Of a stretch of 64,000 bases of DNA, positions 1,264 through 61,332 are shown in pieces. This DNA comes from a virus. Location of the stretch: positions 62,001 to 126,000 of the IMG/VR virus record IMGVR_UViG_3300005096_000103; one strand, 5' to 3'. Under the pieces are notes generated by a model. It did not search any database. It was not told where the DNA came from and saw only the letters and a program-made list of their open reading frames with translations. A program made the translations under genes and the position numbers. The first letter of the stretch is position 1. Each line of letters opens with the position of its first letter.

Positions 1264-2340
1264 CTAAGCGTAAGCTTTAAGCTGTGTGGCCAATGCTTTC
1301 TTCTGAGGGAGTGGGAGTGTAGGTAAGACCTCTTTCAGTTTCTGAGGGTCAACCTCACCACTACTATCCGTGATATGCTCGACAAAAGATCCTCCCAGGA
1401 TGTCCTCGTAGAACCCTTTATCTAATGCATAGAGTTTTCTCCAAGGAATCAATAATCCTGCAACGTCTGCTGATTCTTCAGAAAGCTTATCAGAATTGAA
1501 TACCGCAAGTTGAGGAGATAGTATACCTTCGTATTCGCTAAGTGAGTGCGTCTCATCTGCAAGACCAATAGTCTCAACGATACTAGATAGCTTAGGTCTG
1601 CTACTAAAGTAGCCTGTAGTAGTCATGCTATTCTTAACTGCATTCGCCAGCTTCTCATATGTCCCCTCTCCCTCCTTATCTCCTTGGAGGTAGCAGGCCC
1701 CAATTCTAGCTTCAAGATGACCTACAAGGGTTTCAACATGGCACCGGGTAACCCCCGCGTGCTTATACACGTCTGTAGGGAGGTCATCAGTACTCATCTG
1801 GTATTCAGCAGCCCTCTTCACGATATTAACAGCCGCGAGTTTAACAGTAGCAGGGAACAATCTCGACTGGTTTTCCAATAGAACGTGCGCTGACTGTTTA
1901 ACAAGGTCAGGAGTGTCAATCCTAAGCCGCTGCATGTCGGGGATTGCGTAGAGGTATTCGTCAGAATTCTCTGCTGCAGACGCGACCTTAACTGCGTCTG
2001 CAAAGTCACGCATATTTCTACGGACTTCGACAGCTAGTTTATGTGCGTCGTATCCATAAGTAGACACGTTATCACATATAGTCCGCAGAACCTCTTTAGG
2101 GAGTTCACTCGCTTGTTTGACCGCGTACATCCACGACATGACCGCGTCGTCACAGGTGTGCACGGGGAACAGCTGCTTATCTGGCCAAGCGTATACAGGC
2201 TTAGCTCGTGACAATTTAGTTAAGGGATTCTTAGGATCAAATTGTCTAGCAAGATCAGCCCTAAAAGCCTGTGCGTTATCAGCTCCTGCTATCTCTGCCA
2301 GAGTGGCTAGATCCGGGTCACTAACGTGGTCATAGAACAT
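1264..2340 (-). CDS. Hypothetical protein (358 aa)
   Basis: First gene of a two-gene minus-strand unit. The ATG at 2340 is preceded by a GGAGA-type Shine-Dalgarno site. The protein is soluble-looking, acidic and mostly helical (for example the QSAHVLLENQSRLFPATVKL region) with no recognised domain. It is divergent from the metallopeptidase/VWA gene, with 76 bases between them holding no promoter I could identify with confidence. Function unknown. Confidence 0.78.
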   Translation of the reverse strand: MFYDHVSDPDLATLAEIAGADNAQAFRADLARQFDPKNPLTKLSRAKPVYAWPDKQLFPVHTCDDAVMSWMYAVKQASELPKEVLRTICDNVSTYGYDAHKLAVEVRRNMRDFADAVKVASAAENSDEYLYAIPDMQRLRIDTPDLVKQSAHVLLENQSRLFPATVKLAAVNIVKRAAEYQMSTDDLPTDVYKHAGVTRCHVETLVGHLEARIGACYLQGDKEGEGTYEKLANAVKNSMTTTGYFSSRPKLSSIVETIGLADETHSLSEYEGILSPQLAVFNSDKLSEESADVAGLLIPWRKLYALDKGFYEDILGGSFVEHITDSSGEVDPQKLKEVLPTLPLPQKKALATQLKAYA

Positions 2341-6130: not shown

Positions 6131-9100
6131 ATGATATCAAGACCTCTAGAGTATTTGCCTAGATTCGTTGATGAAGACCCTAAGAAATCAAAAAACTTTG
6201 ACTCAGAGCTCTTAGACGTAGATGGTAACACCCTCTTTAAGCAGGAGGGAATCATAGCTCCAGCTAATTGGAGTCAGCTCTCTGTAGACATTTTTGCACA
6301 AAAGTATTTTAGGCGCTCAGGTGTACCTCTAGAGACAACCGTAGTCACTAGCGAAGGATTACCGGTCTGGATATCTCGTAGGGTAGCAGCCCAGTATACT
6401 GCTTTTGGAGGTGAGAGTAGCGTATACAAGGTGGTCCGCCGGCTAGCAGGTGGTTGGGTAAATTATATCTACAAGCAGGCTTTACTGGCAGATACCAAGC
6501 TAAACAACCATCATGTGAATCTTGATAACCCTTATAAGCTACAGGAAGCCTTAACTATTCTAGATGAGTCTATGGAAAGCCTGTTCTGGGATATACAGAA
6601 CTCTATGCTACAGCAATGCTGGGCACCGAATTCTCCCCAGTGGTTTAATACAGGGCTCTACTGGGCGTACGGTATCACAGGTGAAGCTAGTGGACACTGG
6701 CATGAGGCACCTAAAGGTTCTAAAAGCGTAGTAGTCGAGAGTGTTGACAGCTACTCACGACCGCAGTGTCACGCATGTTTTATCCAGGAGGTCGAGGATA
6801 CTCTGCTCGGAGATCACGGGATCATGGACCTAGTTGTTAGAGAGGCACGTCTCTTTAAGCTAGGGAGTGGTAGTGGCGCAAACTACTCTAATATCCGAGA
6901 GAAGGGCGCGCCACTATCCGGCGGTGGAGTGTCTTCAGGGCTATCGTCGTTCCTTGAGATCCCTGACGTAGCTGCAGGTGCGATTAAATCCGGAGGGACT
7001 ACCCGACGTGCGGCTCGTATGGTCTCACTCGACTTAAATCACCCCGAGTCTCAACAATTCATCTCCTGGAAAGCTACTGAAGAAGATAAGGCGATGTGCC
7101 TCGCACTAGGATCTAAAGTCTACAGAGAATCCATACGCGCAGTCTACCGAGAGCATACGGATCTCGGGTTCTTAACAGCTAGAGAAAAACAAGTTCTAGC
7201 AGATATAGATCCTAAGGTCCTACATCGTGCTACCCAGGCGCTGAAAACAGGTATCCCACTGAGCAGCTTACTACCTCCTGCTATAGACCTTGGATGGGAA
7301 GGTACAGCGTACAAAACCATCTCAGGTCAAAATGCGAATAACTCGATCCGTATCACCGACGAGTTCATGGATACTCTTCTGGCAGACACTGAGAATCCTG
7401 CAGACTTTAAGTTCACCTCCAGAGTCGGAGGTCGGGAGGCTGTAGAGACAAAATCGCATAAAGCTATCTGGGACGACTTGGTAAAGTCGGCATGGCTTTG
7501 TGGAGACCCTGGTATCCAATTCCACGATACAACAAACCGTGCGAACACTTGTCTGCATAGCGGTACTATTCGCGCCAGCAATCCTTGTAGCGAGTACCTA
7601 TGGTTCGCCGACACCGCATGCAACCTAGCTAGTATAAACCTGATGAAATGCCTAGAGAAGGACCATACAGGAGTCTACTGTTTCTTTACGGAGAAACTAC
7701 AAAATCTTGTAAGGATGATTGTACGCGTCCTAGACGCTACAGTTTCATACGCTCAGTACCCCTATGAGAGTATGGCGTCCGAAAGTCTTAAGTATCGTAC
7801 GATAGGTATTGGAGTATCTAATCTCGGAGCACTCCTCATAACGCTCGGTATACCCTATGGGTCTAAGGAGGGTCGTGATCTAGCAGCAGCAATCATGTCT
7901 ATAATCCAGGGTACCGCGTGCCTTGAAAGTATGAGTCTCGCTGCGGAACTAGGTAGCTTCCCTGCATTCGAGTTTAATAAGGATGCGTACCTAGAAGTAC
8001 TTGAGCAAACCTACACAGACACGTTTAACCTAGTTGTTAATACGTCTATATTTCCAGGGTACTCATCACGGGACATCTACCTTAAAGCTAGAGAAGTGTG
8101 GACCGACGTACACACTGCAATGCATCGAGACGACTTTGCTATGCGCAACGCACAGCTAACAGCTATTGCGCCCACGGGGACTATATCTCTGATCATGGGT
8201 TGCTCGACAAGTTCTATCGAGCCTGGCTACAGCTTAGTCACAAGTAAGAAACTGGCAGGAGGCGGCGAGATCATAACAGAAGCTTCAGACGAAGTTAAAA
8301 ACTATATCTCTGACATTATGCTAGATACCCAAACGGCTGATGACATTATTGAGCAGATCAACGACGGTGTGCCTATCTGTGACGTCGTTGGGTTAGAAGG
8401 TCATAACTACGCCAACGACGTCTTAGCTTGCGCTCTAGACATAACACCAACTAACCATATCCTAATGTGCGCTGCAATTCAGCCATTCGTTAGTGGAGGT
8501 ATCTCAAAGACTATCAACATGCCAAGCAACGCTACGCTACGGCAGGTTGGGGAAGCATTCAAATTAGCGTATCGCGAGGGTCTTAAGAGTATTACAGTGT
8601 ATCGTGATGGTTCTAAGTTCTCTCAGCCCCTAACGTCGTTAGTTGAGACTGTAGTGCCTGCTACAAAGGGTGTTCCAGTTGTTACATCAGGAGTACCTGT
8701 TACAGAAGCTAGGCTCTCAGCGTTGTCTACATCAAAGGAGCCTGCACCTAAGATGCCTCTACCCGCAGTTCGAGTAAGGCTCCCAAATGTCAGAGAAGGT
8801 GTAACGCACAAAATTACAACAGGAGGTATGACATTCTATCTCAGGACAGGAGTCTATGAGGATGGCTCACTGGGGGAGATTTTCCTCTCTACTGCAAAGT
8901 CTGGGTCTACATTCCGCGGAATTCTAGATGCCTTTGCTTGGTCTATCAGCGTTGGACTCCAGTACGGTATACCGCTGTCAGTTTACGCTGCGTCTTTCAC
9001 TGGTACGCTATTTGAACCTAATGGTTTTATTGCAGATCACCCCGACGTTAAGATGTGTGGCTCAATACTCGACGCGATATTCAAGATACTGGTGAAGCAT

Positions 9101-9235
9101 TATGATGGTAGACATACTGAAACTCAAGATAAGTTCACTGGAGAGCCTTGTTCAACTTGTGGTCACTTTAAGCTCGTATCCAACGGATCCTGTAAGATCT
9201 GTAGGAACTGTGGGACAACGACAGGGTGTTCGTAG
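6131..9235 (+). CDS. nrdJ: Adenosylcobalamin-dependent (class II) ribonucleoside reductase
   Basis: 1034 residues, full length for class II NrdJ. It reduces ribonucleotides to deoxyribonucleotides using a cobalamin-generated thiyl radical. Visible features are the reducible cysteine region PQCHACFIQE (residues 211-220, C213/C216), NANNSIRITDEF (about 401-412), the active-site NPCSE (484-488, with N484, C486, E488), and GTISLIMGCSTSSIEP. A TSCPD-like domain (VTHKITTGGMTFYLR onward) follows, then a C-terminal Cys-rich tail with CSTCGH, CKICRNCG and terminal GCS that delivers electrons. No separate small subunit is needed in this class. It is oxygen-indifferent, but depends on host B12 supply. 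All key residues appear intact. Confidence 0.96.
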   Translation: MISRPLEYLPRFVDEDPKKSKNFDSELLDVDGNTLFKQEGIIAPANWSQLSVDIFAQKYFRRSGVPLETTVVTSEGLPVWISRRVAAQYTAFGGESSVYKVVRRLAGGWVNYIYKQALLADTKLNNHHVNLDNPYKLQEALTILDESMESLFWDIQNSMLQQCWAPNSPQWFNTGLYWAYGITGEASGHWHEAPKGSKSVVVESVDSYSRPQCHACFIQEVEDTLLGDHGIMDLVVREARLFKLGSGSGANYSNIREKGAPLSGGGVSSGLSSFLEIPDVAAGAIKSGGTTRRAARMVSLDLNHPESQQFISWKATEEDKAMCLALGSKVYRESIRAVYREHTDLGFLTAREKQVLADIDPKVLHRATQALKTGIPLSSLLPPAIDLGWEGTAYKTISGQNANNSIRITDEFMDTLLADTENPADFKFTSRVGGREAVETKSHKAIWDDLVKSAWLCGDPGIQFHDTTNRANTCLHSGTIRASNPCSEYLWFADTACNLASINLMKCLEKDHTGVYCFFTEKLQNLVRMIVRVLDATVSYAQYPYESMASESLKYRTIGIGVSNLGALLITLGIPYGSKEGRDLAAAIMSIIQGTACLESMSLAAELGSFPAFEFNKDAYLEVLEQTYTDTFNLVVNTSIFPGYSSRDIYLKAREVWTDVHTAMHRDDFAMRNAQLTAIAPTGTISLIMGCSTSSIEPGYSLVTSKKLAGGGEIITEASDEVKNYISDIMLDTQTADDIIEQINDGVPICDVVGLEGHNYANDVLACALDITPTNHILMCAAIQPFVSGGISKTINMPSNATLRQVGEAFKLAYREGLKSITVYRDGSKFSQPLTSLVETVVPATKGVPVVTSGVPVTEARLSALSTSKEPAPKMPLPAVRVRLPNVREGVTHKITTGGMTFYLRTGVYEDGSLGEIFLSTAKSGSTFRGILDAFAWSISVGLQYGIPLSVYAASFTGTLFEPNGFIADHPDVKMCGSILDAIFKILVKHYDGRHTETQDKFTGEPCSTCGHFKLVSNGSCKICRNCGTTTGCS

Positions 9236-9572: not shown

Positions 9573-12500
9573 GTGGAAGACGACCTACTCCAGAGCATCA
9601 TACAAGGCGCCAATCAGGTATTCACCGGATACGCCCAAGGTACTGAAAACGCTAACGCTTTCTCTGCTGCTGCGAGCGCTGCGACACTCCCTGTGCCTCC
9701 ATTGCCGCCGCTGCCGATGCCTCCTCCACTGCCAGTACCTCCGCCTCTATCTCCACCTGGTTTCCTCCCGATGCAGCTACCTGCATTTGCAGGTCCACCC
9801 CCTTATCAGGGTGCTGCAGCACCGTTGCCTATGATGTTACCTCCACTTCCTCCACCTGCGCCGATTATGCCACCGTTGCCTCCCTTCAACCCTTTTGCAG
9901 GAGCGGGTGCTGCAATGCGGAGTGTAGGAGGTATACTACAGAGCGCACAGCGTAATTTAAATCCCACGCCTTACGTAGATTCTGCTATCTCAAGCACGCT
10001 TGAGATGTCTGCAGGTTACATCGTCGGTAATCAGAATCCCTTTATGCGGGAGATGAAGGCTTCTATGCGTCAGGCCGGAGATATTAGATCTTTGTACGGG
10101 ATGGTAGAAGAGGACGCACTCGGCTTAGGTGCACAGGGCCTAGCAACTGCGGGAGCCGCAGCATTTGGAGGTCTTGGAGGTGGGCTAGCTGGCGGAGCTA
10201 TTGGCGGTGCTATGACTGGTGGATCTGCTGGAGGTATCATTACTGGTTCGGATATTGGCGCAACTATCGGCGGTATAGCAGCTCCAATACTTGCACAGAA
10301 CAAATACGTAAGAGCTGTAACACAAGAGGTATTTCAGCCTGCTCTACGGCGCAACCTTGATATATCAAACACTCTAGGGATAAACCAAGGTGTAATGCAG
10401 GGTAGTTCGCTAGATATCTCCGGACGCGGATTAGATATCTACTCTGCAGGGTATGTCTCAGATTCATTAAGCGATCTATCTAACGTAAGACAAGGCGGTA
10501 AAGGTAGCGCTGCAGGTTCATTCACTAAACGTGATCTTATGGACATCATGTCTGTAAGTCGTGAACAAGGTCTGATGGAGTTCGCACAAAACAAAGATGA
10601 GATAGTCGGTGTTGTTAAGAACGTGTCTGGTATGTTGGCGACAGTGGCTAAGATTACAGGGGATCCTGATTTTAGGAACAACATAAAGCTTATCGGGAGC
10701 CTGCGACGTCAAGGTGGTGAGTTGAGTTCTATGTCACAGGATATTGCTGAGCTTCGTAGCGGGGCTGGGATATCTGGGATGTCGCTGCAAGACGCGTTGA
10801 ACTCACAAGGTGCACGAGGCGCTCAAGACTACAGCACTATGGGACTATCCAGATTCCAGGGTACCCGAATGGGGATCTTTGGAGCTGCGCTATCAAACCA
10901 AGCAGTGGCTGGCGGCGCGTACTCTGCTAGCGCTATAGACCGCTTCGGTGGTAAAGATCGGATGGCACAGCGTATTATGCAGATGACTGGGTCCTTCATC
11001 CAGAACTCTGATGCGCTGATCCCAGGTCTAACAAAGGTCGTAGATGGTAAAATCTCAATTGATAAAGAGAAACTCTCTGACTTAAACTCTAACAAGATAT
11101 CCCTGGACCAAGTACTCGCCGATAGCGCAAAGGCTAGCTCAGATCCAAAAGTACTTGAAGGCCTCATCAACTCGATGGACGATCTCAAAGAAGAGATGGC
11201 GAAAGGCTTAGGCCCCCAGGGCTCCTTCTCTATGATGGTTCGCCAGATAGACCGTGTCCAAGCCTCAATGGGGGGTAACGTCTCCTTCGAAGGCGCAGCT
11301 AATATGGTACTCGGGGATAAGACCTCAGCCCGCCAACTGTCAAAACTCTTGGCTAACGGAGGTTTGGATGGTGTAGTCCAAGGACTTGAGTCTGAGTCTA
11401 GACAGTCTCAGTTCTCTGCTGACAAAGCTGCCGCTAAGAACCGGGATGCGACAACAGGTCTCACTGGAGCTTGGAATCGTAGCGATATTGCTACAGGTTG
11501 GTTTAGGCGCGGGATAGGTGGTAGCTACGCTGATATGAACGAGAGTGTCAGCAACTGGACTCAGCGGCGTGACGAGACCGCTAGGATCAAAGCTGGTGGT
11601 GCAACCATGTATGAGAACAGTGGTCGAGCTTACTTGAGCAGCTTGAGCGATAAAGACGTTACAAGCGCTTTCCTCTCTAGAGAGGATACTAGTGGTATGT
11701 CTAAACGTCAGACCCTGTTTAGTCAAGGAGTCTTGGGATTCGCGAGCCAGGTAGGTGGTGGTATGTTCTCAACCGTAAAAGATACGACCCGAGGACTTAC
11801 CGGAGGGGTCCGTGGAATGTATGCTGCGTATAAAGGTGAGGGTAGCTACGCTGCAGCACTAGCACAAGGCAGCATCTATGGGACGGCATATGGCACTGTG
11901 TCTGGATTCGGATCAGCGTACTCAAGAGCCGCAGGCGGTGTAGTCCAGGCTGGATCAGATCTTGGCTACGAGTGGGACACTGCACTAGACGGGTCACGTG
12001 GTGGAGTAGGCGCAAACGAGGCTGCAGCTCTGAGAGACTACAGTCGAAACACCTCCGCGCTAAACCCCGTATCGTACCTAGGTGGTGTCGAAGACTTGGC
12101 AGGTGCTGCAGGTATAAACTCTTCGCTATTTGAACTAGGTAGTTCACTATATAGCCCGTTAACTGGTGGGACAGCGGGTCTACTATACAGGGATATATCC
12201 TCCCGAGGCTTAGTAGGTACCTATGACAAATATACTAGGCCTGCTGACCTAAAGAAAAAATATGCTGATGATAAGAAAGAGCTAGGCATCTACGTAGCGG
12301 CATCGAAAGCTGCGCTAGAAACTGACGGTGAAGGTGGGATGTCTCGACTTAGTGCTCGGGTTAAAAAACAACTCGAAAGTGCTAATGGAGGAAAGCCTGT
12401 ATCGTCTGATCAAGTTCAAGCTGCAGTTAGCGCTATGTTAGACGAGCAGGATACTAAGCGCGAGTATGCCGGTTACGGAGCATATAAAGCGACTAATGCT

Positions 12501-18234: not shown

Positions 18235-19341
18235 ATGCTTACAGACGATCTCGTAGAAAAAATGGCTAAGCTAGGTAAACAACGTTCTACACCTGTACCC
18301 TCTGGCTACCCTGTCAATCTATCGTTCGAGCTGAAGATGGCTCGTATCGCTAACCTGTTGAAGATGCCCTCTATCCCTAAGATCCCTAACGTCGTAGGAT
18401 CTTCTACTAAGGGTCTCGGGGACTCGGTATCTGCTTCAGCAAAGTCATTCTCTGCAAGTTCATTATCTCCAAAGTCGTTATCACCTAAGACTAACTTTAA
18501 GCCTATTGCAGCTCCTAAGCCTAAGCTACCTGCTACAGCGTCTAGCATAGCACCGGCAAAGAAACTGCAAGGTGGTAGTGCAGACTGGACCGCATCGGTA
18601 AAGTCAGCAAAAGTTACAGAAGTAGATGTCTTTAAGCTCACTAGGAAGCAAAAGGATATACAGCTGTGGAAGGACTGGAAGCACAGTGGACATAAGCCTG
18701 GAGCATTAAAGCCGCTGATGTCTGCGCTAGCCCCTGTTATTTTTAGCCAGACTAAGATGTGGAAAGGTCAAGTTCCAGACTACGCCCTAGATCGTACAGC
18801 TCAAAGCCTGGCGCTCAAAGCATTGTATAGTTACGACCCTAATAAAGGCGCGGCGCTCAATACACACGTAACAAATGGTCTGCGTAAGATAAGCAGGACC
18901 GTCTACCAGAACCAAGATATTATAAGACTACCTGAAGATAAAAAGCTTGAGAGTCAAGCCATCTTCAAATCAACTCAGGCTCTAGAGGACGAGCTAGGAC
19001 GGACGCCTTCCGATATGGAACTAGCCGATGATCTAGGGTGGAATGTCAATAAAGTCCGAAAGTCACAGGGACTCGGGGTTAACGAGTTGGTATCTAGTCT
19101 CGATGCAGGTGGTTTGTCTTTAGGGGATAATGGCGACTCTGATCGTAAACTGCGTGATACGATACATTACGTATACGCGGGATTACCTCCTACTGACCAA
19201 GTCATCTTTGAGCATTCAACTGGGTTTAGCGGAAAGCCTCGCAAGACAGCACTGCAGATATCTAAGATGGTTAAGATGTCACCTGGGCAAGTTCACCAGC
19301 GTAAGAAATCAATAGCTGATATGCTAAAGAAGGTGATGTAA
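18235..19341 (+). CDS. Sigma-70-family-like protein encoded in the tail operon
   Basis: 368 residues. The first ~120 are Ser/Ala/Pro/Lys-rich and look disordered. Residues about 170-225 resemble sigma region 2: LALKALYSYDPNKGAALNTH, VTNGLRKISR, then DIIRLPEDK. Residues about 240-275 match region 3 (LGRTPSDMELADDLGWNVNK). Residues about 315-368 look like region 4 with a C-terminal helix-turn-helix (TALQISKMVKMSPGQVHQRK). It should bind core RNA polymerase or DNA. Its unusual place between hub and M15 peptidase genes suggests a late product, perhaps packaged, but that is inference. It is a candidate reader of the TGGTATAAG promoters in this window. Confidence 0.82.
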   Translation: MLTDDLVEKMAKLGKQRSTPVPSGYPVNLSFELKMARIANLLKMPSIPKIPNVVGSSTKGLGDSVSASAKSFSASSLSPKSLSPKTNFKPIAAPKPKLPATASSIAPAKKLQGGSADWTASVKSAKVTEVDVFKLTRKQKDIQLWKDWKHSGHKPGALKPLMSALAPVIFSQTKMWKGQVPDYALDRTAQSLALKALYSYDPNKGAALNTHVTNGLRKISRTVYQNQDIIRLPEDKKLESQAIFKSTQALEDELGRTPSDMELADDLGWNVNKVRKSQGLGVNELVSSLDAGGLSLGDNGDSDRKLRDTIHYVYAGLPPTDQVIFEHSTGFSGKPRKTALQISKMVKMSPGQVHQRKKSIADMLKKVM

Positions 19342-20127
19342 GTGCAACGTACAGTGTTTAAAGGTCCACCTGAGAAGAGGGTTAGGGTTAAAAACCTAGG
19401 GATCTTAACAAAGACGGATCCTAGAGCTGTACTACTAGACGCTAAGCTGCGCGGTGGTGGTAGACAGTGGCTCCACTGGAGAGCTGCGACTAAGTTAGCC
19501 CAGTTGCTACAAGCCGCGTGGTCTGTAACCCCTGATCTAAGGGCAGTGTCCTGTCTAAGAGACCCAAAGAAAGATACTAAGGAAGAGTGGATAGCTAAGA
19601 TCAAAGCCTTTGACATTACGCCATCAGCCAGAGCGCCTAACGGTCCTAGAAAATACTGGAAGGTGACAGATCAAACAGAAGATCAATCTAGGAAACGGTT
19701 ATTCAGATTCAGAGCGTATAACAGTGGTCACGAAACCGGGCTATCTGTTGACTTTGCGTCTAGGTCAGAGGGTCTAGGGACCAACAGTAAACGTATCCAC
19801 TTTTATAGGGGTACACAGGTTTACGCGTGGCTAGCTTCCAACGCTATTAACTACGGGTTCACACCTTATAATAACGAACCGTGGCATTGGGAGTTATTCC
19901 TAACTCGCAAAGAATGGTTAGAGCTGCCTGACGGCGGATTCGTGATGCCAGACGCTTATGCGGCTAGAGCTACAGGCTTTAGTAGCGTCACACGTTATGA
20001 CGCCTATCAAAGTGCAAAAGACCCTCTAGCTGCAGACGTTCCTCTCGATAAAAAAATAGTTTACAAGATAGACCACGTACGTAGTATCGGAAAACTCTTT
20101 GACTTTGACTTAAACGTCTGGAGATAG
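19342..20127 (+). CDS. M15-family (VanY/D-Ala-D-Ala carboxypeptidase-like) peptidase
   Basis: 261 residues from GTG 19342, 1 nt after the previous gene. It has the M15 zinc motif SGHETGLSVDFAS, giving ligands H130 and D137, and NNEPWHWE, giving catalytic E179 and ligand H182. The enzyme would cut peptidoglycan stem peptides. It lies inside the baseplate region rather than beside a holin, so it may be a tail-associated entry hydrolase; an endolysin role is also possible. The N-terminal ~100 residues are basic and may bind the virion or wall. No signal peptide. Confidence 0.88.
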   Translation: MQRTVFKGPPEKRVRVKNLGILTKTDPRAVLLDAKLRGGGRQWLHWRAATKLAQLLQAAWSVTPDLRAVSCLRDPKKDTKEEWIAKIKAFDITPSARAPNGPRKYWKVTDQTEDQSRKRLFRFRAYNSGHETGLSVDFASRSEGLGTNSKRIHFYRGTQVYAWLASNAINYGFTPYNNEPWHWELFLTRKEWLELPDGGFVMPDAYAARATGFSSVTRYDAYQSAKDPLAADVPLDKKIVYKIDHVRSIGKLFDFDLNVWR

Positions 20128-20168
20128 AATAGTGTATACTGGACTCCTTTTGAGGGGAGTGTGACACC

Positions 20169-20612
20169 TTGGCAAATACAAAAGACGACATTTGGGTTAA
20201 CCTATTTAGTGACGAACTCAATCAGGTGCAGTTCTCCTTTGGGTTAGGGGCGGGAGAGATACAGCGTGTATCAGGTAAGACACGCGTGCTTATGCAGTGG
20301 GTCAAAGTCCTTATGACCCGCCCAGGCTCTAATATCTTTGATCTTAACTACGGTACAGTGTTCAGCGAGCTTGTAAACTCTAATACTTCTGACGACGCAT
20401 ACGCTCGTGAAGTTGGAGCGGCTGGTATAGACCAGGCAACGGCAATTATAAAAAAGAATCAGTTAGGTAAGAGTTTCCCTGCAGGTGAGCGTCTAGAAAA
20501 CCACGAACTCCTCTCATTCGAAAAGTTGTCTGATACGAGCGTGTCCTTCATCGTGTCTCTCGTAAACGAACTCGGTGAGTCTATGTTGGTTGGCATTAGA
20601 ACAGGAAGTTGA
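20169..20612 (+). CDS. gp25/gpW-like baseplate wedge protein
   Basis: 147 residues from TTG 20169, with GAGGGGAGT at 20153-20161. The segment VLMTRPGSNIFDLNYGTVFSELV matches the core pattern of gp25-like baseplate proteins (a TRPG-x-D-x-x-G stretch), and the length fits. It is directly followed by the J-like gene, the usual order for contractile tails. In the baseplate these proteins link the sheath to the wedge. The 41-base gap before it has a small ACTCC/GGAGT hairpin that includes the Shine-Dalgarno site. Confidence 0.78.
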   Translation: MANTKDDIWVNLFSDELNQVQFSFGLGAGEIQRVSGKTRVLMQWVKVLMTRPGSNIFDLNYGTVFSELVNSNTSDDAYAREVGAAGIDQATAIIKKNQLGKSFPAGERLENHELLSFEKLSDTSVSFIVSLVNELGESMLVGIRTGS

Positions 20613-20615
20613 TAA

Positions 20616-23090
20616 ATGGCCACTGTAACGTTATCTGCGTCTGACATACAGAAAGCTGAAGAGTTTGTAGCTAGCTTCTTAGCAGCTGAAAACCCTGATG
20701 CTGACTACTCTAAAGGTTCAACCCTCCGAGATCTCGCGGTACGCGGTATCGCTATCTCATATGCGTACCTCACCTCACTATCTGATAAGGTACGCACGCT
20801 CTCAAGAATCAAAGAGATAGCTGTTATCACTGACGATGAAGAGCGTGCTGAGGCTATAATCAATTTCTCAGCTAACTTCTTTCTCACGCCACGAGCTGGT
20901 CGATACGCCCAGGGTTTAGTAGATATCTACTTTGATAAGCCCGTGTTTGGTGTTGTACCTAGCGCGTCTATATTCACGTTCAATTCTACGATTAACTACG
21001 TCCTTAACAACTTAGGTCAGCCACTAATCTTTGACACTGGAGATCTGACTACCGTATCCGTAGGTTTAGGGGGCAATACTCAGGTCCTGTATACGCTTCG
21101 TGTCCCTATCATAGCACTGAAAGTTGGAACTAGCTCACACATCGTTCCTCAAGTAGCTAGCAACTTTACTAGATTTCTCGCTGAAATAGTAAAAGTCGAA
21201 TCTATAGAGCCTATCACAAACGGTAGTGACGTTGAAGATGCTGATGTTTTCTTAGAGCGGATCCCTAACGCAATAACTGTAAGGAATCTACTGACTGAAC
21301 GTTCAATAACTACAGTTCTCACAGAAGGTTATCCACAGATAAGCTCACTCACTGTCATCGGCGCTGAAGACAGTGAGATGACTCGGGATATATCTCCCAT
21401 CTCCACAGAAGCTTTACCAATACACACAGGTGGTTCTGTAGACATTTTTGTTGATACTGGGATCATCACTACAGTATTCGAGGGTCTTATAGGTTCTCCA
21501 GCTACAGAGCGCTCCCCCTTGATTACAGTCTTCCGTGACTTACAGCTTATCGATATGGGAGTTGACTGGCGTGGTATGGTCGAACCAGGGGATACACTAC
21601 GAATCTACAATACTGAGGGGTCTGAGCCTAGCCTCTATCTAATACATAATGTTAGCGGTTACTTCCTCAGAGTCCAGGACCTCTTGCCGTTCAAGACGGC
21701 CAGGCCTGTAATCCTGCATAACGGAACCCGCTATGAGGAGTGTACACTCGTTGTTGCGACACTTATACTTACAGTCCCCTATACAAAGTTCACGAGTAGT
21801 GACATCGGTAACTTTGTATACCTCTGGGCTGCGGGTGATGCCTACTACAAAGAGATCAAATCCATCGTCAATCTGACCAGTCAAGGTTATGGGGACGTAG
21901 AACTAATTGACGTTGAAGGCGACCTCGCTACGTTTGCTACTAGTGGCATATCTGTGAGTGCATATGACTCTAAGGTCGAGTACTCTATTGGAGACGATGC
22001 TCCTACATACGCTAATAAGATGAGCAAGCGAGACTTTGGCCAGATAACTCGTAGTTACTTCTCGCCTGATGGAGTTATACTTACCGGGCTCCCAATATAC
22101 AAGATACACAGTGTAACACTCGTAGATACCACAAATCTTGCTGCATCTGCCGAAGTAGGTGGGGCGTCATTCGTAACTAGAGTTAATGTTCCACCAGAGA
22201 TGAAAGCAGATAAGACGCTCAACTATGAGTATCAAGCTATCAGCTTTGCCCCTAACTACCACCAGTCTACTAAAAGCTCGACACTAATACGTGTAGGCCC
22301 TGTGGACTCTAGAGGTGGCAACCAAGGCTCACTCGCTGTAACGAATGCTGCAACTCGGCAGGGCGTCTTTTCTAGTTTAGCTCCTGACTTTACTGTAGCA
22401 GACGTAGGCCTTGAGATCCTAGTGACCAAGGCGTTCAACCCTGGAAACGCAGGGCTTTATACGATTGATAGTGTCATAGACTCTAAGAACGTAAACGTAA
22501 CTAAAAACTCAAGGCACTATGATCCTGATGCTTTGGCTAATGAGATAAACTTAACCTGGGAAGTTATCGCGTCTAGTCGCGTTAGCGGATTACTACGTGT
22601 TACCTACGACACACTGAGTAACTTTAGTAGCCTGGCTGCATACGTTCAAGATTCTCCAGATCGTGTTGTAGCCTCAAGCCCGTTAGTTAAAGGCTACCAC
22701 CCTGTCTACCTTAGCATGAGCTTGAACTACACTGTTAAGACTGGTGAAGACCCGCCTGACGAAAATCAGATGAAAGCCAGTGTTGTAGACTTCGTAAACA
22801 ACTTCCTGGCTACTGACGTACTCAACGTAGGAGATATTACTAGCTACCTACGTCGGGCATTTACGAGCATAGGAAATATACTGCAACCTGTTAAAGTGGA
22901 CTACACGCTATACTCTCCCACAGGGGATGCTATCGTGTTCACTACCTACGACATAGTTGAAATATCCTCTACTAGTCTACTCTCTGCTTCGGACAGCGCA
23001 CTCTACTCCCTCGCTAAGAAATACGGGGTTAGTGATCGAACTGTGAGATATGTCTGTACCCGCAGTGACATCTCCCTCCTGAAGGTGTAA
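20616..23090 (+). CDS. Baseplate J-like wedge protein
   Basis: 824 residues. The N-terminus has the family hallmark: a helix, then ENPDADYSKGSTLRDLAVRG and a helix LSDKVRTLSRIKEI. The C-terminal region (VVDFVNNFLATDVLNVGDI, then YLRRAF) matches the end of J-like/gp47 wedge proteins. A central insertion carries beta-rich domains, one of which (FNPGNAGLYTIDSV) recurs in the next protein. It is longer than typical gpJ (about 300-400), as in large myoviruses. It starts 3 nt after the gp25-like gene and ends 2 nt before the next, so the three are translated as a unit. Confidence 0.82.
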   Translation: MATVTLSASDIQKAEEFVASFLAAENPDADYSKGSTLRDLAVRGIAISYAYLTSLSDKVRTLSRIKEIAVITDDEERAEAIINFSANFFLTPRAGRYAQGLVDIYFDKPVFGVVPSASIFTFNSTINYVLNNLGQPLIFDTGDLTTVSVGLGGNTQVLYTLRVPIIALKVGTSSHIVPQVASNFTRFLAEIVKVESIEPITNGSDVEDADVFLERIPNAITVRNLLTERSITTVLTEGYPQISSLTVIGAEDSEMTRDISPISTEALPIHTGGSVDIFVDTGIITTVFEGLIGSPATERSPLITVFRDLQLIDMGVDWRGMVEPGDTLRIYNTEGSEPSLYLIHNVSGYFLRVQDLLPFKTARPVILHNGTRYEECTLVVATLILTVPYTKFTSSDIGNFVYLWAAGDAYYKEIKSIVNLTSQGYGDVELIDVEGDLATFATSGISVSAYDSKVEYSIGDDAPTYANKMSKRDFGQITRSYFSPDGVILTGLPIYKIHSVTLVDTTNLAASAEVGGASFVTRVNVPPEMKADKTLNYEYQAISFAPNYHQSTKSSTLIRVGPVDSRGGNQGSLAVTNAATRQGVFSSLAPDFTVADVGLEILVTKAFNPGNAGLYTIDSVIDSKNVNVTKNSRHYDPDALANEINLTWEVIASSRVSGLLRVTYDTLSNFSSLAAYVQDSPDRVVASSPLVKGYHPVYLSMSLNYTVKTGEDPPDENQMKASVVDFVNNFLATDVLNVGDITSYLRRAFTSIGNILQPVKVDYTLYSPTGDAIVFTTYDIVEISSTSLLSASDSALYSLAKKYGVSDRTVRYVCTRSDISLLKV

Positions 23091-57372: not shown

Positions 57373-57633
57373 TCAACTCACCGCCTTAGCGTAAGATACC
57401 ATCCTCCTTAAAAAAGATCCTGTATTTCTTGCGGCTCTAACACCTCTTGCGCCTACAATACCAAGGCTAGTCAAGCCAACTAGACCTCCCCCGCCTATTA
57501 TGAGCTTCTGAGTTGTAGACACACCATTTCTGCCCTTAGAGTCTTGATGGCTCATTGCAACTTTTAGGCTGGAGGTTTCAGCGTTGTAAGCGTTTTGATA
57601 GGCTAGCTTGACTAAGCTTTGTAGGTTGTACAT
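57373..57633 (-). CDS. N-tagged glycine-zipper protein 1 (86 aa)
   Basis: ATG 57633 with AGGAGA upstream. Residues 1-19, MYNLQSLVKLAYQNAYNAE, are the tag shared with its neighbours. After a basic linker, IIGGGGLVGLTSLGIVGARG is a Gly-rich hydrophobic segment, then basic residues (RAARNTGSFLRRM). The tag DNA (57594-57633) is nearly identical to that of the next gene, so they are recent duplicates. Possible capsid-targeted or membrane-inserting protein. Confidence 0.68.
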   Translation of the reverse strand: MYNLQSLVKLAYQNAYNAETSSLKVAMSHQDSKGRNGVSTTQKLIIGGGGLVGLTSLGIVGARGVRAARNTGSFLRRMVSYAKAVS

Positions 57634-57642
57634 GATGGTCTC

Positions 57643-57924
57643 CTAGACTGCCTTCTTAATAACTTTAGCAGCTGCTGCTGCTGCTGCACCCATAGCAGAC
57701 TTAGACTTGAGTAACTTTTTTGCGGATCGTCGTGCTGCTAATGTTGCAATCCCAATACCGGCTGTAGTCCCTACGACTCCTTGGCCAATGGTTTTAAAGA
57801 GGCTATCTGATTTAGTTACGAGTCCGTCGATTCCGCGGTGCTTAAGTGCAATCTTTACACTGTCAACGTAGTCGTCGTAGGCGTTTTGATAGGCTAGCTT
57901 GACTAAGCTCTGGAGGTTGTACAT
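57643..57924 (-). CDS. N-tagged glycine-zipper protein 2 (93 aa)
   Basis: ATG 57924; GGGAG lies upstream, separated by a run of nine A on the minus strand. Tag MYNLQSLVKLAYQNAYDDY, then Gly/Ala hydrophobic segment (GQGVVGTTAGIGIATLAARR) and an Ala/Lys-rich C-terminus (GAAAAAAAKVIKKAV). Closest relative of protein 1 at DNA level. Function unknown. Confidence 0.68.
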   Translation of the reverse strand: MYNLQSLVKLAYQNAYDDYVDSVKIALKHRGIDGLVTKSDSLFKTIGQGVVGTTAGIGIATLAARRSAKKLLKSKSAMGAAAAAAAKVIKKAV

Positions 57925-57951
57925 CTTTTTTTTTAGCTCCCAAGAATGTTG

Positions 57952-58545
57952 TTATAGTACTTTGGCTACGTTCTTAGCAACACTTGCTAGAACCTTCTCA
58001 GCTTTTAGAGCTGCTGTACCCTTAGCTGCAATGTTAACCGTTTTGTTTACTGTACTAGGGACTGCTTTTGCTGCGGCGTTAGCTGCTACGTTAAGTGTCT
58101 TAGCTTCGCTCCTAATACCCGCTTTGGCTGCTGCGGCGCTAGTAGCTCGCTGCTTACTTACTGTCTTGTATAAGTCCTTACCTAAATCTCTCACAGTGTC
58201 CACGCCGTAGCCTAAGCCCTCACGCGCCATAGTTGGTATAGCTGAGAGACCTTTAGCCTTCCCTAGTCGTGAGTATCTCTTAGCTAAATTCGTCTTTGCA
58301 GATGTACCACCTAGAAACTTCTGAGCTATTGCACCAGTTCCTACTAATCCAGTTCCTGCAACTAGGCCTCCCCCTCCTGCAGCTAGTCCTGCTGCTGCAA
58401 TTCCAGCACCTGAACTTCCTTTACGGCGAGGTACAGGCAAATGTGCTGCGATTTTATTTAGCTGGGAGGCTAGCGCACCATATTCCTCGTTATACGCAAT
58501 TGTGTATACACTAGCTAGGCATTTCTTATGTGTGTCTGTGTACAT
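57952..58545 (-). CDS. N-tagged glycine-zipper protein 3, larger and divergent (197 aa)
   Basis: ATG 58545. The tag is weaker (MYTDTHKKCLASVYTIAYNEE) but keeps the Y-x-x-A-Y-N-E-E end. Middle Gly/Ala segment (GIAAAGLAAGGGGLVAGTGL), and a long Ala/Lys-rich helical C-terminus with repeated KAV/KTVN elements. About twice the size of the others. Unknown. Confidence 0.66.
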   Translation of the reverse strand: MYTDTHKKCLASVYTIAYNEEYGALASQLNKIAAHLPVPRRKGSSGAGIAAAGLAAGGGGLVAGTGLVGTGAIAQKFLGGTSAKTNLAKRYSRLGKAKGLSAIPTMAREGLGYGVDTVRDLGKDLYKTVSKQRATSAAAAKAGIRSEAKTLNVAANAAAKAVPSTVNKTVNIAAKGTAALKAEKVLASVAKNVAKVL

Positions 58546-58569
58546 CTATCTTCCCTAAGTAAGTCGCCA

Positions 58570-58989
58570 TTACATCTGAGCTAAAGCAGCGCGGAGATTA
58601 CGTCCCCTCTCAAAAGATATATCCCCCTGGAGCTCTGAGACTGTATCTCTAACCACAGACTTATTAGCGCCTCTAGCAGCGCGTAATCCTGCACCAGCCC
58701 AGTCGTCTACGACGTTGAACGCTTTGCGCATCCCACGACCTACCCCGTAAGTCAGACCTATTGTCGCTGCTGTTCCTGCCGCCGCGATTCCTAAGCCTTT
58801 TGCGACGCCACCCATAGTAACAGGTCCAGTCTGTGTGGGTATTGGTGGTCGCATGGGTGGCATCAGCGCCTGTGCCTGGCTGTGCATAGCGACTTTAGGG
58901 CTCGACGGGCTAGCTAGTCGAATCCGTCGGACCTCTTCAGCGTATGAACGTTGATACGCCAGTTTTACTATGTAATCTAGGTCATTCAT
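58570..58989 (-). CDS. N-tagged glycine-zipper protein 4 (139 aa)
   Basis: ATG 58989. Tag MNDLDYIVKLAYQRSYAEE, a Pro/Met-rich linker (ALMPPMRPPIPTQTG), then AKGLGIAAAGTAATIGLTYG. C-terminal basic, amphipathic helix (GRGMRKAFNVVDDWAG). Gene order and composition match the family. Unknown. Confidence 0.68.
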   Translation of the reverse strand: MNDLDYIVKLAYQRSYAEEVRRIRLASPSSPKVAMHSQAQALMPPMRPPIPTQTGPVTMGGVAKGLGIAAAGTAATIGLTYGVGRGMRKAFNVVDDWAGAGLRAARGANKSVVRDTVSELQGDISFERGRNLRAALAQM

Positions 58990-59008
58990 TCATATACCCA
59001 TAGGTACG

Positions 59009-59410
59009 CTAAGTTACAGCCTTAACTACAGTCTTAGCAGTATCAGCAGCAGCAGCTAGAGCTTTGCGTTTCTTTAGTGCGTTCATGATAGTATAACCTG
59101 TAGACGCTAAGAGTCCGCCACTTAAACCATCTACAATGCGGTTATCAAGAGTACCTTTACGTCTACTCACGTACTCTGTTACCTTTTCACCAGGGAGCAT
59201 CTTAGCACGTATATGCCTGGCTTGCTTCCCTCTATCACCAATCATATGCTTTAAGTTGTAGATTTCCTTCGCCGTCAGCTTAGACGACACGCGTTTAAGC
59301 GACTCGCGAATCGTAGCGTCTCGTTTACGCGGATCAGCGTTCTTAATCGCTGCCATCTCTTTGTTGTACGCTTCGGAGTAGGCGAGCTTTACTAGGTGCT
59401 GTAAATTCAT
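59009..59410 (-). CDS. N-tagged protein 5, basic (133 aa)
   Basis: ATG 59410. Tag MNLQHLVKLAYSEAYNKE, then a very basic helical middle (DPRKRDATIRESLKRVSSKL; ARHIRAKMLPGEKV), and a weakly hydrophobic C-terminal region (GGLLASTGYTIMNALKKRKA). The glycine zipper is less clear here. A nucleic-acid-binding internal protein is plausible. Confidence 0.67.
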   Translation of the reverse strand: MNLQHLVKLAYSEAYNKEMAAIKNADPRKRDATIRESLKRVSSKLTAKEIYNLKHMIGDRGKQARHIRAKMLPGEKVTEYVSRRKGTLDNRIVDGLSGGLLASTGYTIMNALKKRKALAAAADTAKTVVKAVT

Positions 59411-59451
59411 CTTTTAACCCTTTATAGCCTTGAAACTAAATTCACACCCTT

Positions 59452-59480
59452 ACGAAGTAGGTTCTAGTGGCCTACTTCGT
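59452..59480 (-). terminator. 10-bp hairpin between tagged genes
   Basis: ACGAAGTAGG (59452-59461) pairs with CCTACTTCGT (59471-59480), in the 128-base gap between proteins 5 and 6. No clear U tract on the minus strand, so it may pause transcription or protect RNA rather than terminate. Confidence 0.5.
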
Positions 59481-59538
59481 TTAGACGTTGAGGAGACTCT
59501 ATTAATCTATATACCCGTCTGACGCCGGGACCAGTCGT

Positions 59539-59901
59539 CTATGCGTTCCTTAAGAGGGGTACACCTATAGCTGCAAATTCGTCCAGTCGACGCTGCGTCC
59601 GTGAAGGCGCTGACGCTGCGTCGACTACTTCCCCCGCGACATCCCCTACAGCGTCGACTGCAGCTCCACCAGCTTGACGGAGCCCTCTGCCTTTAAGGTA
59701 GCGACCTCCTAAGTATAGCGCACCTGCGCCCATAGCTAGACCGCCTAGACCTGCACCAACCTGCGCTCCTAACCCAACTTTAGCTGGAGTGCTTAGGCCT
59801 TTGTCTTGTCCTTCCTGACTGAAGAATCCTGCAAGTTTAGCAGACTCTTCGTTATAGGCTTGCTGGTATGCTAGCTTCATGTGGTATTGCAGGTTGTTCA
59901 T
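59539..59901 (-). CDS. N-tagged glycine-zipper protein 6 (120 aa)
   Basis: ATG 59901, the first gene of the minus-strand cluster. Tag MNNLQYHMKLAYQQAYNEE, then QVGAGLGGLAMGAGALYLGG, a classic glycine zipper, and an Ala/Val/Asp C-terminus. Probably begins the operon; the 201 bases upstream are intergenic. Function unknown. Confidence 0.68.
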   Translation of the reverse strand: MNNLQYHMKLAYQQAYNEESAKLAGFFSQEGQDKGLSTPAKVGLGAQVGAGLGGLAMGAGALYLGGRYLKGRGLRQAGGAAVDAVGDVAGEVVDAASAPSRTQRRLDEFAAIGVPLLRNA

Positions 59902-60102: not shown

Positions 60103-61332
60103 ATGGGACTTAGGGAAACTGCTAGAAACAATACTATCGCAGGTGGAATTGCGGGTGCGGGGTTTGGCGGCCTTGGTGGTGGACTCAAAGCTTTCCGACG
60201 TGGAGGGGGTCTCGCTGGAGCGGGCCTCGGTGTCTTAGGTGGAGGTCTACTAGGTGGTATCGGAGGTGGTATCGGAGGTGGCATCACTGCAGGTGTCTCA
60301 CACGCAGTAGGTAACGGCAACCTCGGATATGCACAACAGGCTGGTGGTGACGCAATTCTTGGAGGCATCCTCTCTGCGCCCCTTGGCGCAAAGGGTGCAC
60401 TACTAGGAAGTGCACTAGGTGGTGGGCAAGGTGCTGCTAGGGAGTATATTAGGCAGAAGATCTCGGCTAGTCAGGGGCTTGGAGAGGCTATTGGTGAGAA
60501 CGCTATTGCAGGAGGTCTTGTAGGCGCTGGAATTGGAGGTCTCGCTGGTGGGGCTCGGGCCATACGGGCTGGTGGTGGATTAGCTGGTGTAGGTCTAGGC
60601 GCCTTAACCGGCGTTTTAGGTGGTGGGATTGCAGGTGGAATCGGTGGAGGCATAGTCGGTGGAGGGCTGAACGCTGTTGGGAAAGAGGAGGGTTATAGAG
60701 GTCAAGTTGCAGGTGGTGCACTACTCGGTGGACTCTTAGCAGCGCCTTTTGGCCCGCAAGCTGCACTAGCAGGTGGCGCACTAGGTGGTGGGCAAGGCGC
60801 TGCTAGGGAGTACGTCAGGCAGAAGATCTCGGCTAGTCAGGGGCTTGGAGAGGCTGTAGTGGAGAACGCTGTTGCAGGCGGTGTGGGCAATGGTGTAGTC
60901 GGAGGTTTAACAGGCGGAGCACTTGGCGCACTAGGTGGTGGTCTTGGGGGTTACTTCGTGGGCAGAGAGGAGAAAAAAGTAGGCCCTGTGCTAGGGGCCC
61001 TATTAGGCGCAGGTCTCGGCGCGGGAGCCGGCGCACTAGGCGGGACGGCGTTAGCTTCAGGTCTAGGTGCACTTGAAGGCGCTGGTGCTGGTGCAATGAT
61101 GCACGCTGCAGGTGTAAAGCCTAACTACAAAAACCAGATGCTTGCGAGTGCAGGTATCGGTGGTCTTTTAGGCTTGTCGGGTGGAGCTTTAGCACCCATT
61201 ACCGTTCCAGTATCTGCGGCTACAGGTTCTCTAAATGGGATACCTCGCGAGTATGCACGTCGAGTACTCTACAAAGAGTCGTCTTATAGATCTGAGGGTC
61301 TTAGTGCTGCAGAGATGTGTGGATTCCGCTAG
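60103..61332 (+). CDS. Repetitive glycine-zipper protein (409 aa)
   Basis: ATG 60103 with AGGGGA upstream. Built from about 2.6 repeats of ~122 residues: an acidic start (ETARNNTIAGG, then GLGEAIGENAIAGG and GLGEAVVENAVAGG), a long GxxxG stretch, and AREYIRQKISASQ. The DNA of 60412-60510 and 60778-60876 is nearly identical (offset 366 bp), so the duplication is recent. Probably forms a helical hairpin bundle in membrane, or a packaged ejection protein. No tag like that of the minus-strand cluster. Confidence 0.68.
   Translation: MGLRETARNNTIAGGIAGAGFGGLGGGLKAFRRGGGLAGAGLGVLGGGLLGGIGGGIGGGITAGVSHAVGNGNLGYAQQAGGDAILGGILSAPLGAKGALLGSALGGGQGAAREYIRQKISASQGLGEAIGENAIAGGLVGAGIGGLAGGARAIRAGGGLAGVGLGALTGVLGGGIAGGIGGGIVGGGLNAVGKEEGYRGQVAGGALLGGLLAAPFGPQAALAGGALGGGQGAAREYVRQKISASQGLGEAVVENAVAGGVGNGVVGGLTGGALGALGGGLGGYFVGREEKKVGPVLGALLGAGLGAGAGALGGTALASGLGALEGAGAGAMMHAAGVKPNYKNQMLASAGIGGLLGLSGGALAPITVPVSAATGSLNGIPREYARRVLYKESSYRSEGLSAAEMCGFR

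What the first reader, a model, noticed from the sequence alone, without database searches (positions are those of the whole stretch)
57373..59901. A cluster of six small proteins sharing an N-terminal tag and Gly-rich hydrophobic segments
Five of six minus-strand genes begin with versions of M-x-L-x-x-(L/I)-V-K-L-A-Y-x-x-(A/S)-Y-x-x-E, and the sixth keeps the AYNEE end. After the tag, sequences diverge into glycine-zipper membrane-like segments with basic Ala-rich tails. A shared tag with diverse cargo is the pattern of capsid-targeting sequences on packaged internal proteins (as in T4), or of a common export/assembly signal. The tag differs from T4's. This is the best candidate here for an undescribed system: a set of packaged, membrane-inserting ejection proteins or packaged effectors.
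Basis: partly seen in the sequence, partly recalled or inferred. Interest (0 to 1): 0.78.

Follow-up and report, generated by a model that had tools for sequence, protein, structure and literature searches.

The report
Shared packaging tag on phage head proteins
A large uncultured bacterial virus puts the same short address label on several otherwise unrelated small proteins, and comparison with about 80 related viruses suggests the label sends proteins into the forming virus head, where the virus's own protease probably trims it off, so that the cargo can later be injected into the host.

Summary
Six adjacent minus-strand genes (57373-59901) exist. Five share an N-terminal tag that each leave-one-out profile recovers (E 1e-6 to 1e-13). 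The sixth keeps only a weak version (E~1). A seventh copy sits in the tail/head region outside the window. Glycine-zipper and membrane claims are only partly true.

The window belongs to a 138-kb phage record distantly related to Salmonella phage Arash and Vibrio phage D69. Across ~80 related phages the head modules are enriched twofold in K-x-A (3727 observed, 1858 expected; control pairs flat), with consensus [LMF]-[EV]-K-x-A-[SA]. 68 of 70 distinct major capsid proteins carry K-x-A near residue 22-30. I infer it is the head-maturation protease's cleavage motif; the same statistic recovers T4's known [LI]-x-E. The tags contain K-L-A, and a second K-x-A follows in all six genes.

Several relatives have their own N-terminal tags in front of Gly/Ala-rich proteins, a DNA ligase and (untested) ADP-ribosyltransferase-like proteins. 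Best reading: a capsid-targeting propeptide working like T4's CTS, but with different sequences. No virion data exist for this phage, so packaging and cleavage are inferred.

The parts
59539..59901 (-). Tagged protein 1, 120 aa, MNNLQYHMKLAYQQAYNEE; Gly/Ala-rich segment; net charge +2
59009..59410 (-). Tagged protein 2, 133 aa, MNLQHLVKLAYSEAYNKE; basic (+16), no convincing membrane segment
58570..58989 (-). Tagged protein 3, 139 aa, MNDLDYIVKLAYQRSYAEE; Gly/Ala-rich segment
57952..58545 (-). Protein 4, 197 aa, weak tag (VYTIAYNEEYGAL, then NKIA); very basic (+20)
   Evidence: (tag profile not significant, E about 1)
57643..57924 (-). Tagged protein 5, 93 aa, MYNLQSLVKLAYQNAYDDY
   Evidence: near-identical tag to protein 6 also at the DNA level
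57373..57633 (-). Tagged protein 6, 86 aa, MYNLQSLVKLAYQNAYNAE; one membrane-like Gly-rich segment (hydropathy 1.82)
59845..59901 (-). N-terminal tag of protein 1 (residues 1-19)
59357..59410 (-). N-terminal tag of protein 2 (residues 1-18)
58933..58989 (-). N-terminal tag of protein 3 (residues 1-19)
57868..57924 (-). N-terminal tag of protein 5 (residues 1-19)
57577..57633 (-). N-terminal tag of protein 6 (residues 1-19)
59830..59838 (-). Candidate processing site KLA (residues 22-24), cut predicted before G25
   Evidence: motif; inferred
59336..59344 (-). Candidate processing site KNA (residues 23-25)
   Evidence: inferred
58888..58896 (-). Candidate processing site KVA (residues 32-34); RLA-S at residues 24-27 is an alternative
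   Evidence: inferred
58447..58455 (-). Candidate processing site KIA (residues 31-33)
   Evidence: inferred
57847..57855 (-). Candidate processing site KIA (residues 24-26)
   Evidence: inferred
57556..57564 (-). Candidate processing site KVA (residues 24-26)
   Evidence: inferred

Best explanation
The shared N-terminus is a capsid-targeting propeptide. During head assembly it docks the small proteins into the core of the prohead. The phage's head-maturation protease then cuts after a K-x-A motif: most likely the one at residues 22-34, possibly also the K-L-A inside the tag. This frees the basic cargo inside the head, from where it is ejected with the DNA. Shown by sequence: the tag, its spread over unlike proteins, K-x-A in all six genes, a homologue of head-maturation protease in the same phage, a family-wide K-x-A signature confined to head modules and placed at one spot near the N-terminus of the major capsid protein, and analogous tags in several relatives. 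Inferred: that K-x-A is the cut site, that the tag binds the core, and that the cargo is ejected. What each cargo does is unknown; DNA condensation, protection from host nucleases or action at the membrane are all possible.
For: Tag statistics and the seventh copy. Head protease homologue (phrog_18299 E 7.6e-6; D69 and Arash homologues E 8e-31 and 2e-27). In this phage K-x-A is enriched in the head module (65 seen, 29.7 expected, z 7.9), not in the tail module (z 0.7) or the rest (z -1.5), and KA, KxxA, AxK and RxA are not enriched. The consensus [LMI]-x-K-x-A-[S/A/G] is the same in Arash and D69. In ~80 related loci: 3727 seen, 1858 expected, ratio above 1.3 in 73 of 76, all controls flat, S after the A at z 40. 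68 of 70 distinct capsid proteins carry K-x-A near residue 22-30. The same statistic recovers T4's known [LI]-x-E (46 vs 22.7, z 5.9). K-x-A at residues 18-40 in 6 of 6 cluster proteins, chance 1.2e-4. Relatives carry other tags on many proteins: G001 and G002 (S/F)YxxGYNxxxKxAGL, G005 and G009 FYxxGxxxALxxLG(F)xKxA. One G009 cargo is a LigD-type DNA ligase (Pfam LigD_N above cut-off). Most Arash proteins rich in the motif, and its two Gly-rich head-module proteins gp213 and gp224, were detected in virions by mass spectrometry (PMC10585845).
Against: No virion proteomics or cleavage data for this phage; it is a metagenomic record. Over their whole length the six proteins are not enriched in K-x-A (14 vs 10.9, z 1.0). 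The residue after the putative cut is M, L, A, M, D or G rather than the preferred S. The tag itself is not found by profile in 52 related records, so its link to the other tags rests on design, not on significant homology. The cluster lies about 75 kb from the head module and shares no promoter word with it. N-terminal tag families were not found in all relatives examined (none in Arash, G003, G004, G007). Arash peptide coverage of 80-100% for K-x-A-rich proteins means those proteins are not simply degraded and lost.
Confidence: 0.66

Rival explanations
1. The tag targets proteins into the head, but K-x-A is a docking motif for the prohead core or another head component rather than a cut site, and nothing is cleaved.
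For: K-x-A is abundant inside proteins that stay in the Arash virion with 80-100% peptide coverage. A docking motif would also be conserved in the capsid protein N-terminus and in tags.
Against: Ser is strongly preferred right after the A (z 40) and one hydrophobic position sits two before K, which looks like a protease subsite pattern. A head protease homologue is present, and the T4 cleavage motif shows the same enrichment pattern.
Confidence: 0.18
2. The six genes are a recently duplicated paralogue family whose N-terminus is a leftover of common ancestry; the shared part has no targeting role and the proteins act in the infected cell, for example as small membrane-active or host-takeover proteins.
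For: 57373 and 57643 are clearly recent duplicates. Genes around the cluster on the plus strand look like accessory genes. No virion evidence exists.
Against: The tag is kept at protein level despite many synonymous changes, while the rest is unalignable. It occurs on a seventh protein in the structural region, between sheath-like and tube-like genes. Relatives show the same tag-plus-varied-cargo design, with cargo as different as a DNA ligase.
Confidence: 0.12
3. The tagged proteins are tail- or portal-associated ejection (pore) proteins that build a channel, and the tag is an assembly signal for the tail or portal rather than for the head core.
For: The seventh tagged gene lies between the sheath-like and tube-like genes, and G005 has a tagged gene at the same place. 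Some cluster proteins have Gly-rich membrane-like segments.
Against: K-x-A is enriched in the head module, not the tail module. In G005 and G009 tagged genes sit among the head-module RNA polymerase genes.
Confidence: 0.08

Closest known systems
T4 internal proteins IPI, IPII, IPIII and Alt with the capsid-targeting sequence (CTS) and gp21 protease
   Same: Small, mostly basic proteins with a shared short N-terminal sequence and unlike mature parts; the shared part ends near a motif of the head-maturation protease; enzyme cargo in relatives.
   Different: Tag sequence is unrelated, motif is [LMF]-x-K-x-A-[S/A] instead of [LI]-x-E, tag plus site is about 24-34 residues rather than 10-19, and there are no experimental data (T4 facts from PMC9026906).
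P1 DarB N-terminal capsid localisation signal
   Same: A short N-terminal stretch (30 residues sufficient) targets a protein, and a reporter, into the head (PMC9024508).
   Different: P1 Dar proteins are anti-restriction factors; no K-x-A link was tested; sequences were not compared here.
SPN3US / phiKZ giant-phage head proteins with propeptides cut by gp245 at A-x-E
   Same: Large heads with many internal proteins and a virion RNA polymerase; short (20-24) to long propeptides removed by the head protease; Ser preferred after the cut (PMC10052503).
   Different: Motif differs (A-x-E versus K-x-A), and this phage belongs to the Arash/D69-related group and encodes a sigma-like factor.
Salmonella phage Arash structural module (gp204-gp226)
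   Same: Same gene order (portal, RNA polymerase parts, gp218, gp220, protease, capsid) and the same K-x-A motif.
   Different: Arash shows no family of shared N-terminal tags in this analysis.

Membership tests
Capsid-targeting sequence / internal-protein system (T4-like in function) | One N-terminal sequence shared by several proteins whose mature parts are unrelated | tested here: met
   five strong tags plus one outside the window; the rest of the proteins do not align.
Capsid-targeting sequence / internal-protein system (T4-like in function) | The same phage encodes a head-maturation protease | tested here: met
   (phrog_18299), (alignment with Arash and D69 homologues).
Capsid-targeting sequence / internal-protein system (T4-like in function) | The tag ends at, or contains, that protease's cleavage motif | tested here: inconclusive
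   K-x-A present in all six after the tag and K-x-A is a family-wide head-module signature, but cleavage at K-x-A has never been measured.
Capsid-targeting sequence / internal-protein system (T4-like in function) | Proteins are inside the virion and ejected into the host | not testable with these tools
   Metagenomic record; no virion data. Arash counterparts in the head module are in virions.
T4 CTS by sequence | T4 gp21 motif [LI]-x-E at the cut and T4-type CTS sequence | tested here: not met
   The tag has K-L-A-Y; the most enriched pair of this phage's head module is K-x-A.
Glycine-zipper membrane proteins | Repeated G-x3-G beyond composition in a membrane-like segment | tested here: inconclusive
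   G-x3-G near expectation; one of six segments above the usual hydropathy threshold of 1.6.

The most novel reading that the evidence does not exclude
A large, mostly uncultured group of phages with virion-type RNA polymerases uses a head-protease code not described in the papers I could search ([LMF]-x-K-x-A before S/A). Individual lineages have evolved their own N-terminal packaging tags that carry varied cargo, including DNA ligase, candidate ADP-ribosyltransferases and basic Gly/Ala-rich proteins, into the head for injection.
Probability: 0.55. Interest if true: 0.8.

Novelty: new variant of a known kind. Interest (0 to 1): 0.66.

Why it matters
If right, it gives a sequence rule for reading head maturation and for spotting packaged, injected proteins in a big group of uncultured phages whose genes are mostly unknown. 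It would also show that T4's way of labelling cargo for the head is a general, repeatedly reinvented strategy, and offer new short tags for loading proteins into phage heads.

Tried and rejected
Direct relatives of the cluster proteins: none in the phage collection or by close-relative search; one cluster protein has a weak match to an 85-aa ORF (E 8.8e-5), not pursued. Pfam and PHROGs give no convincing family for the six proteins. DNA-pattern scan for the tag in IMG/VR gave 10 chance-like hits (L021 the only one of some interest). Tag profile against 52 related records: no hit. Idea that the tag repeats inside the scaffold-like protein: 7 seen, 3.1 expected, dropped. Shared late promoter between cluster and head genes: none found. 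ADP-ribosyltransferase reading of several tagged proteins in relatives: no Pfam hit, no PDB sequence hit, AlphaFold2 on a single sequence failed (pLDDT 32); only a sub-threshold DUF6886 hit in G005. It remains a reading by eye. Simple generic tag regex: too loose. Literature searches found no report of a K-x-A head-protease motif; the library lacks most subscription journals.

Full report
WHAT IS THERE. Six consecutive minus-strand ORFs fill 57373-59901 exactly as reported. The window is record positions 62001-126000 of a 138,359-base virus record. Five of the six share an N-terminal tag M-x-(x)-L-x-x-[LIH]-[VM]-K-L-A-Y-x-x-[AS]-Y. Profiles built without the tested member still find it at E 1.3e-6 to 8.8e-13. 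The sixth gene, 57952-58545, is not significant (E about 1), though it keeps IAYNEEY. A seventh tagged protein, 213 aa, MDTASLIKLAYANAFVDTLNSVGIGQDEFMEKAASS, lies outside the window at 9750-10391 of the record (leave-one-out E 0.003). Codons of the tag differ at many synonymous positions between genes, so the amino-acid sequence is under constraint. The rest of the proteins do not align. Hydrophobic Gly/Ala-rich segments are present in five but reach membrane-helix hydropathy only in 57373-57633, and G-x3-G is not above composition.

WHICH PHAGE. The record's head module lies on the minus strand at about 20-44 kb, outside the window. Gene by gene it follows Salmonella phage Arash and Vibrio phage D69: portal, RNA polymerase beta part, RNA polymerase beta' part, gp218-, gp220- and protease-like genes, capsid. 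The 679-aa protein at 23458-25497 matches a head-maturation protease family and the Arash and D69 homologues.

THE K-x-A MOTIF. In the head module K-x-A is the most enriched gapped pair: 65 against 29.7 expected (z 7.9), while KA, KxxA, AxK and RxA are not enriched, and neither the tail module (z 0.7) nor the rest of the genome (z -1.5) shows it (first seen). Arash and D69 show the same, with the same surroundings: L/M/I two before K and S one after A. Searches with alignments of the RNA polymerase and the protease gave two sets of 80 related IMG/VR loci. Around the protease, K-x-A is seen 3727 times against 1858 expected, with a ratio above 1.3 in 73 of 76 loci; control pairs are flat (0.89-1.02). 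The consensus is [LMF]-[EVT]-K-[QEVT]-A-[SA]. In the major capsid protein, 68 of 70 distinct homologues have K-x-A near residue 22-30, with very different neighbours; the two exceptions look like a truncated ORF and a wrong start. As a positive control, the same count on T4 core and head proteins puts the known gp21 motif [LI]-x-E on top (46 against 22.7, z 5.9). I therefore infer that K-x-A, with S or A preferred next, is the maturation cleavage motif of this group. That is an inference: no cut has been measured. The alternative, a docking motif, is kept as a rival.

THE TAG AND THE MOTIF. The tag contains K-L-A, and a second K-x-A follows at residues 22-34 in all six cluster genes; by shuffling the chance is about 1.2e-4. 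The seventh protein has a textbook site, F-M-E-K-A-A-S. Over their whole length the six proteins are not enriched in K-x-A (z 1.0), which fits one or two sites near the N-terminus rather than degradation.

RELATIVES REPEAT THE DESIGN. In the two closest relatives, G001 and G002, at least 14 proteins carry another N-terminal tag, x-(S)-[YF]-x-x-G-Y-N-x-x-[LM]-K-x-A-G-L-(x-K-x-A). In G005 and G009 the tag is F-Y-x-x-G-x-x-x-A-L-x-x-L-G-[LF]-x-K-x-A, on genes inside the head module and beside it. The cargo is varied: Gly/Ala-rich proteins, a DNA ligase with LigD phosphoesterase domain (Pfam LigD_N above cut-off), an ATP-grasp-like protein below cut-off, and several that look to me like ADP-ribosyltransferases, which could not be confirmed. 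A sigma factor in G001 starts with GMEKTA rather than the full tag. Between sheath-like and tube-like genes, this phage and G005 each carry a protein with the local tag, and G006 has MLDTKDLIKIA at the same place. The tags of different lineages are not significantly similar, so they may be related by rapid divergence or by reinvention. Not every relative has such a family.

VIRION EVIDENCE FROM ARASH. Arash is the only member with published virion proteomics among those used here. Its motif-rich proteins gp218, gp220-gp226 and gp242, and the Gly-rich gp213 and gp224, are all in the virion list (PMC10585845). That list is long (116 proteins), so presence alone is modest evidence.

MECHANISM AND STANDING. 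The best reading is a capsid-targeting propeptide: the tag brings the proteins into the prohead core, the protease cuts after K-x-A, and the cargo stays in the head and is ejected with DNA. It works like T4's CTS on IPI-III and Alt (PMC9026906) and P1's DarB signal (PMC9024508), but it is not a T4 CTS by sequence or by motif. Confidence is about 0.66 for packaging plus cleavage; the role of each cargo is open.

Noticed in passing
window 18235-19341, + strand: Sigma-70-like factor (Pfam Sigma70_r3 above cut-off); its C-terminal part is 44% identical to a sigma-like protein of G001. Arash has a sigma factor in its virion, so this phage may package its own sigma factor with its RNA polymerase.
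   Followed up: partly
window 1264-2340, - strand: 358-aa protein with six K-x-A sites (1.35 expected), conserved in G001, G002, G003, G005 and others but away from the head module; a candidate head or core protein.
   Followed up: partly
window 60103-61332, + strand: 409-aa protein of repeated Gly-rich units, divergently transcribed next to the cluster; no relatives found.
   Followed up: no
window 6131-9235, + strand: Ribonucleotide reductase of the B12-dependent class II type, 1034 aa.
   Followed up: no
L191 3127-3666 (G001 100627-101166), - strand: A protein with the G001-type tag in its middle (KESSYSDGYNTIMKVARL) after an N-terminal Gly-rich part; could be a fusion or an internal signal.
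   Followed up: no
L230 16942-18417 (G009), - strand: Tagged LigD-type DNA ligase in the head module; suggests repair of injected DNA by a packaged enzyme.
   Followed up: partly
record position 19889-20806 (- strand; joins L005/L006): Major capsid protein of this phage, missed by piecewise ORF calling because it crosses the 20-kb cut.
   Followed up: yes
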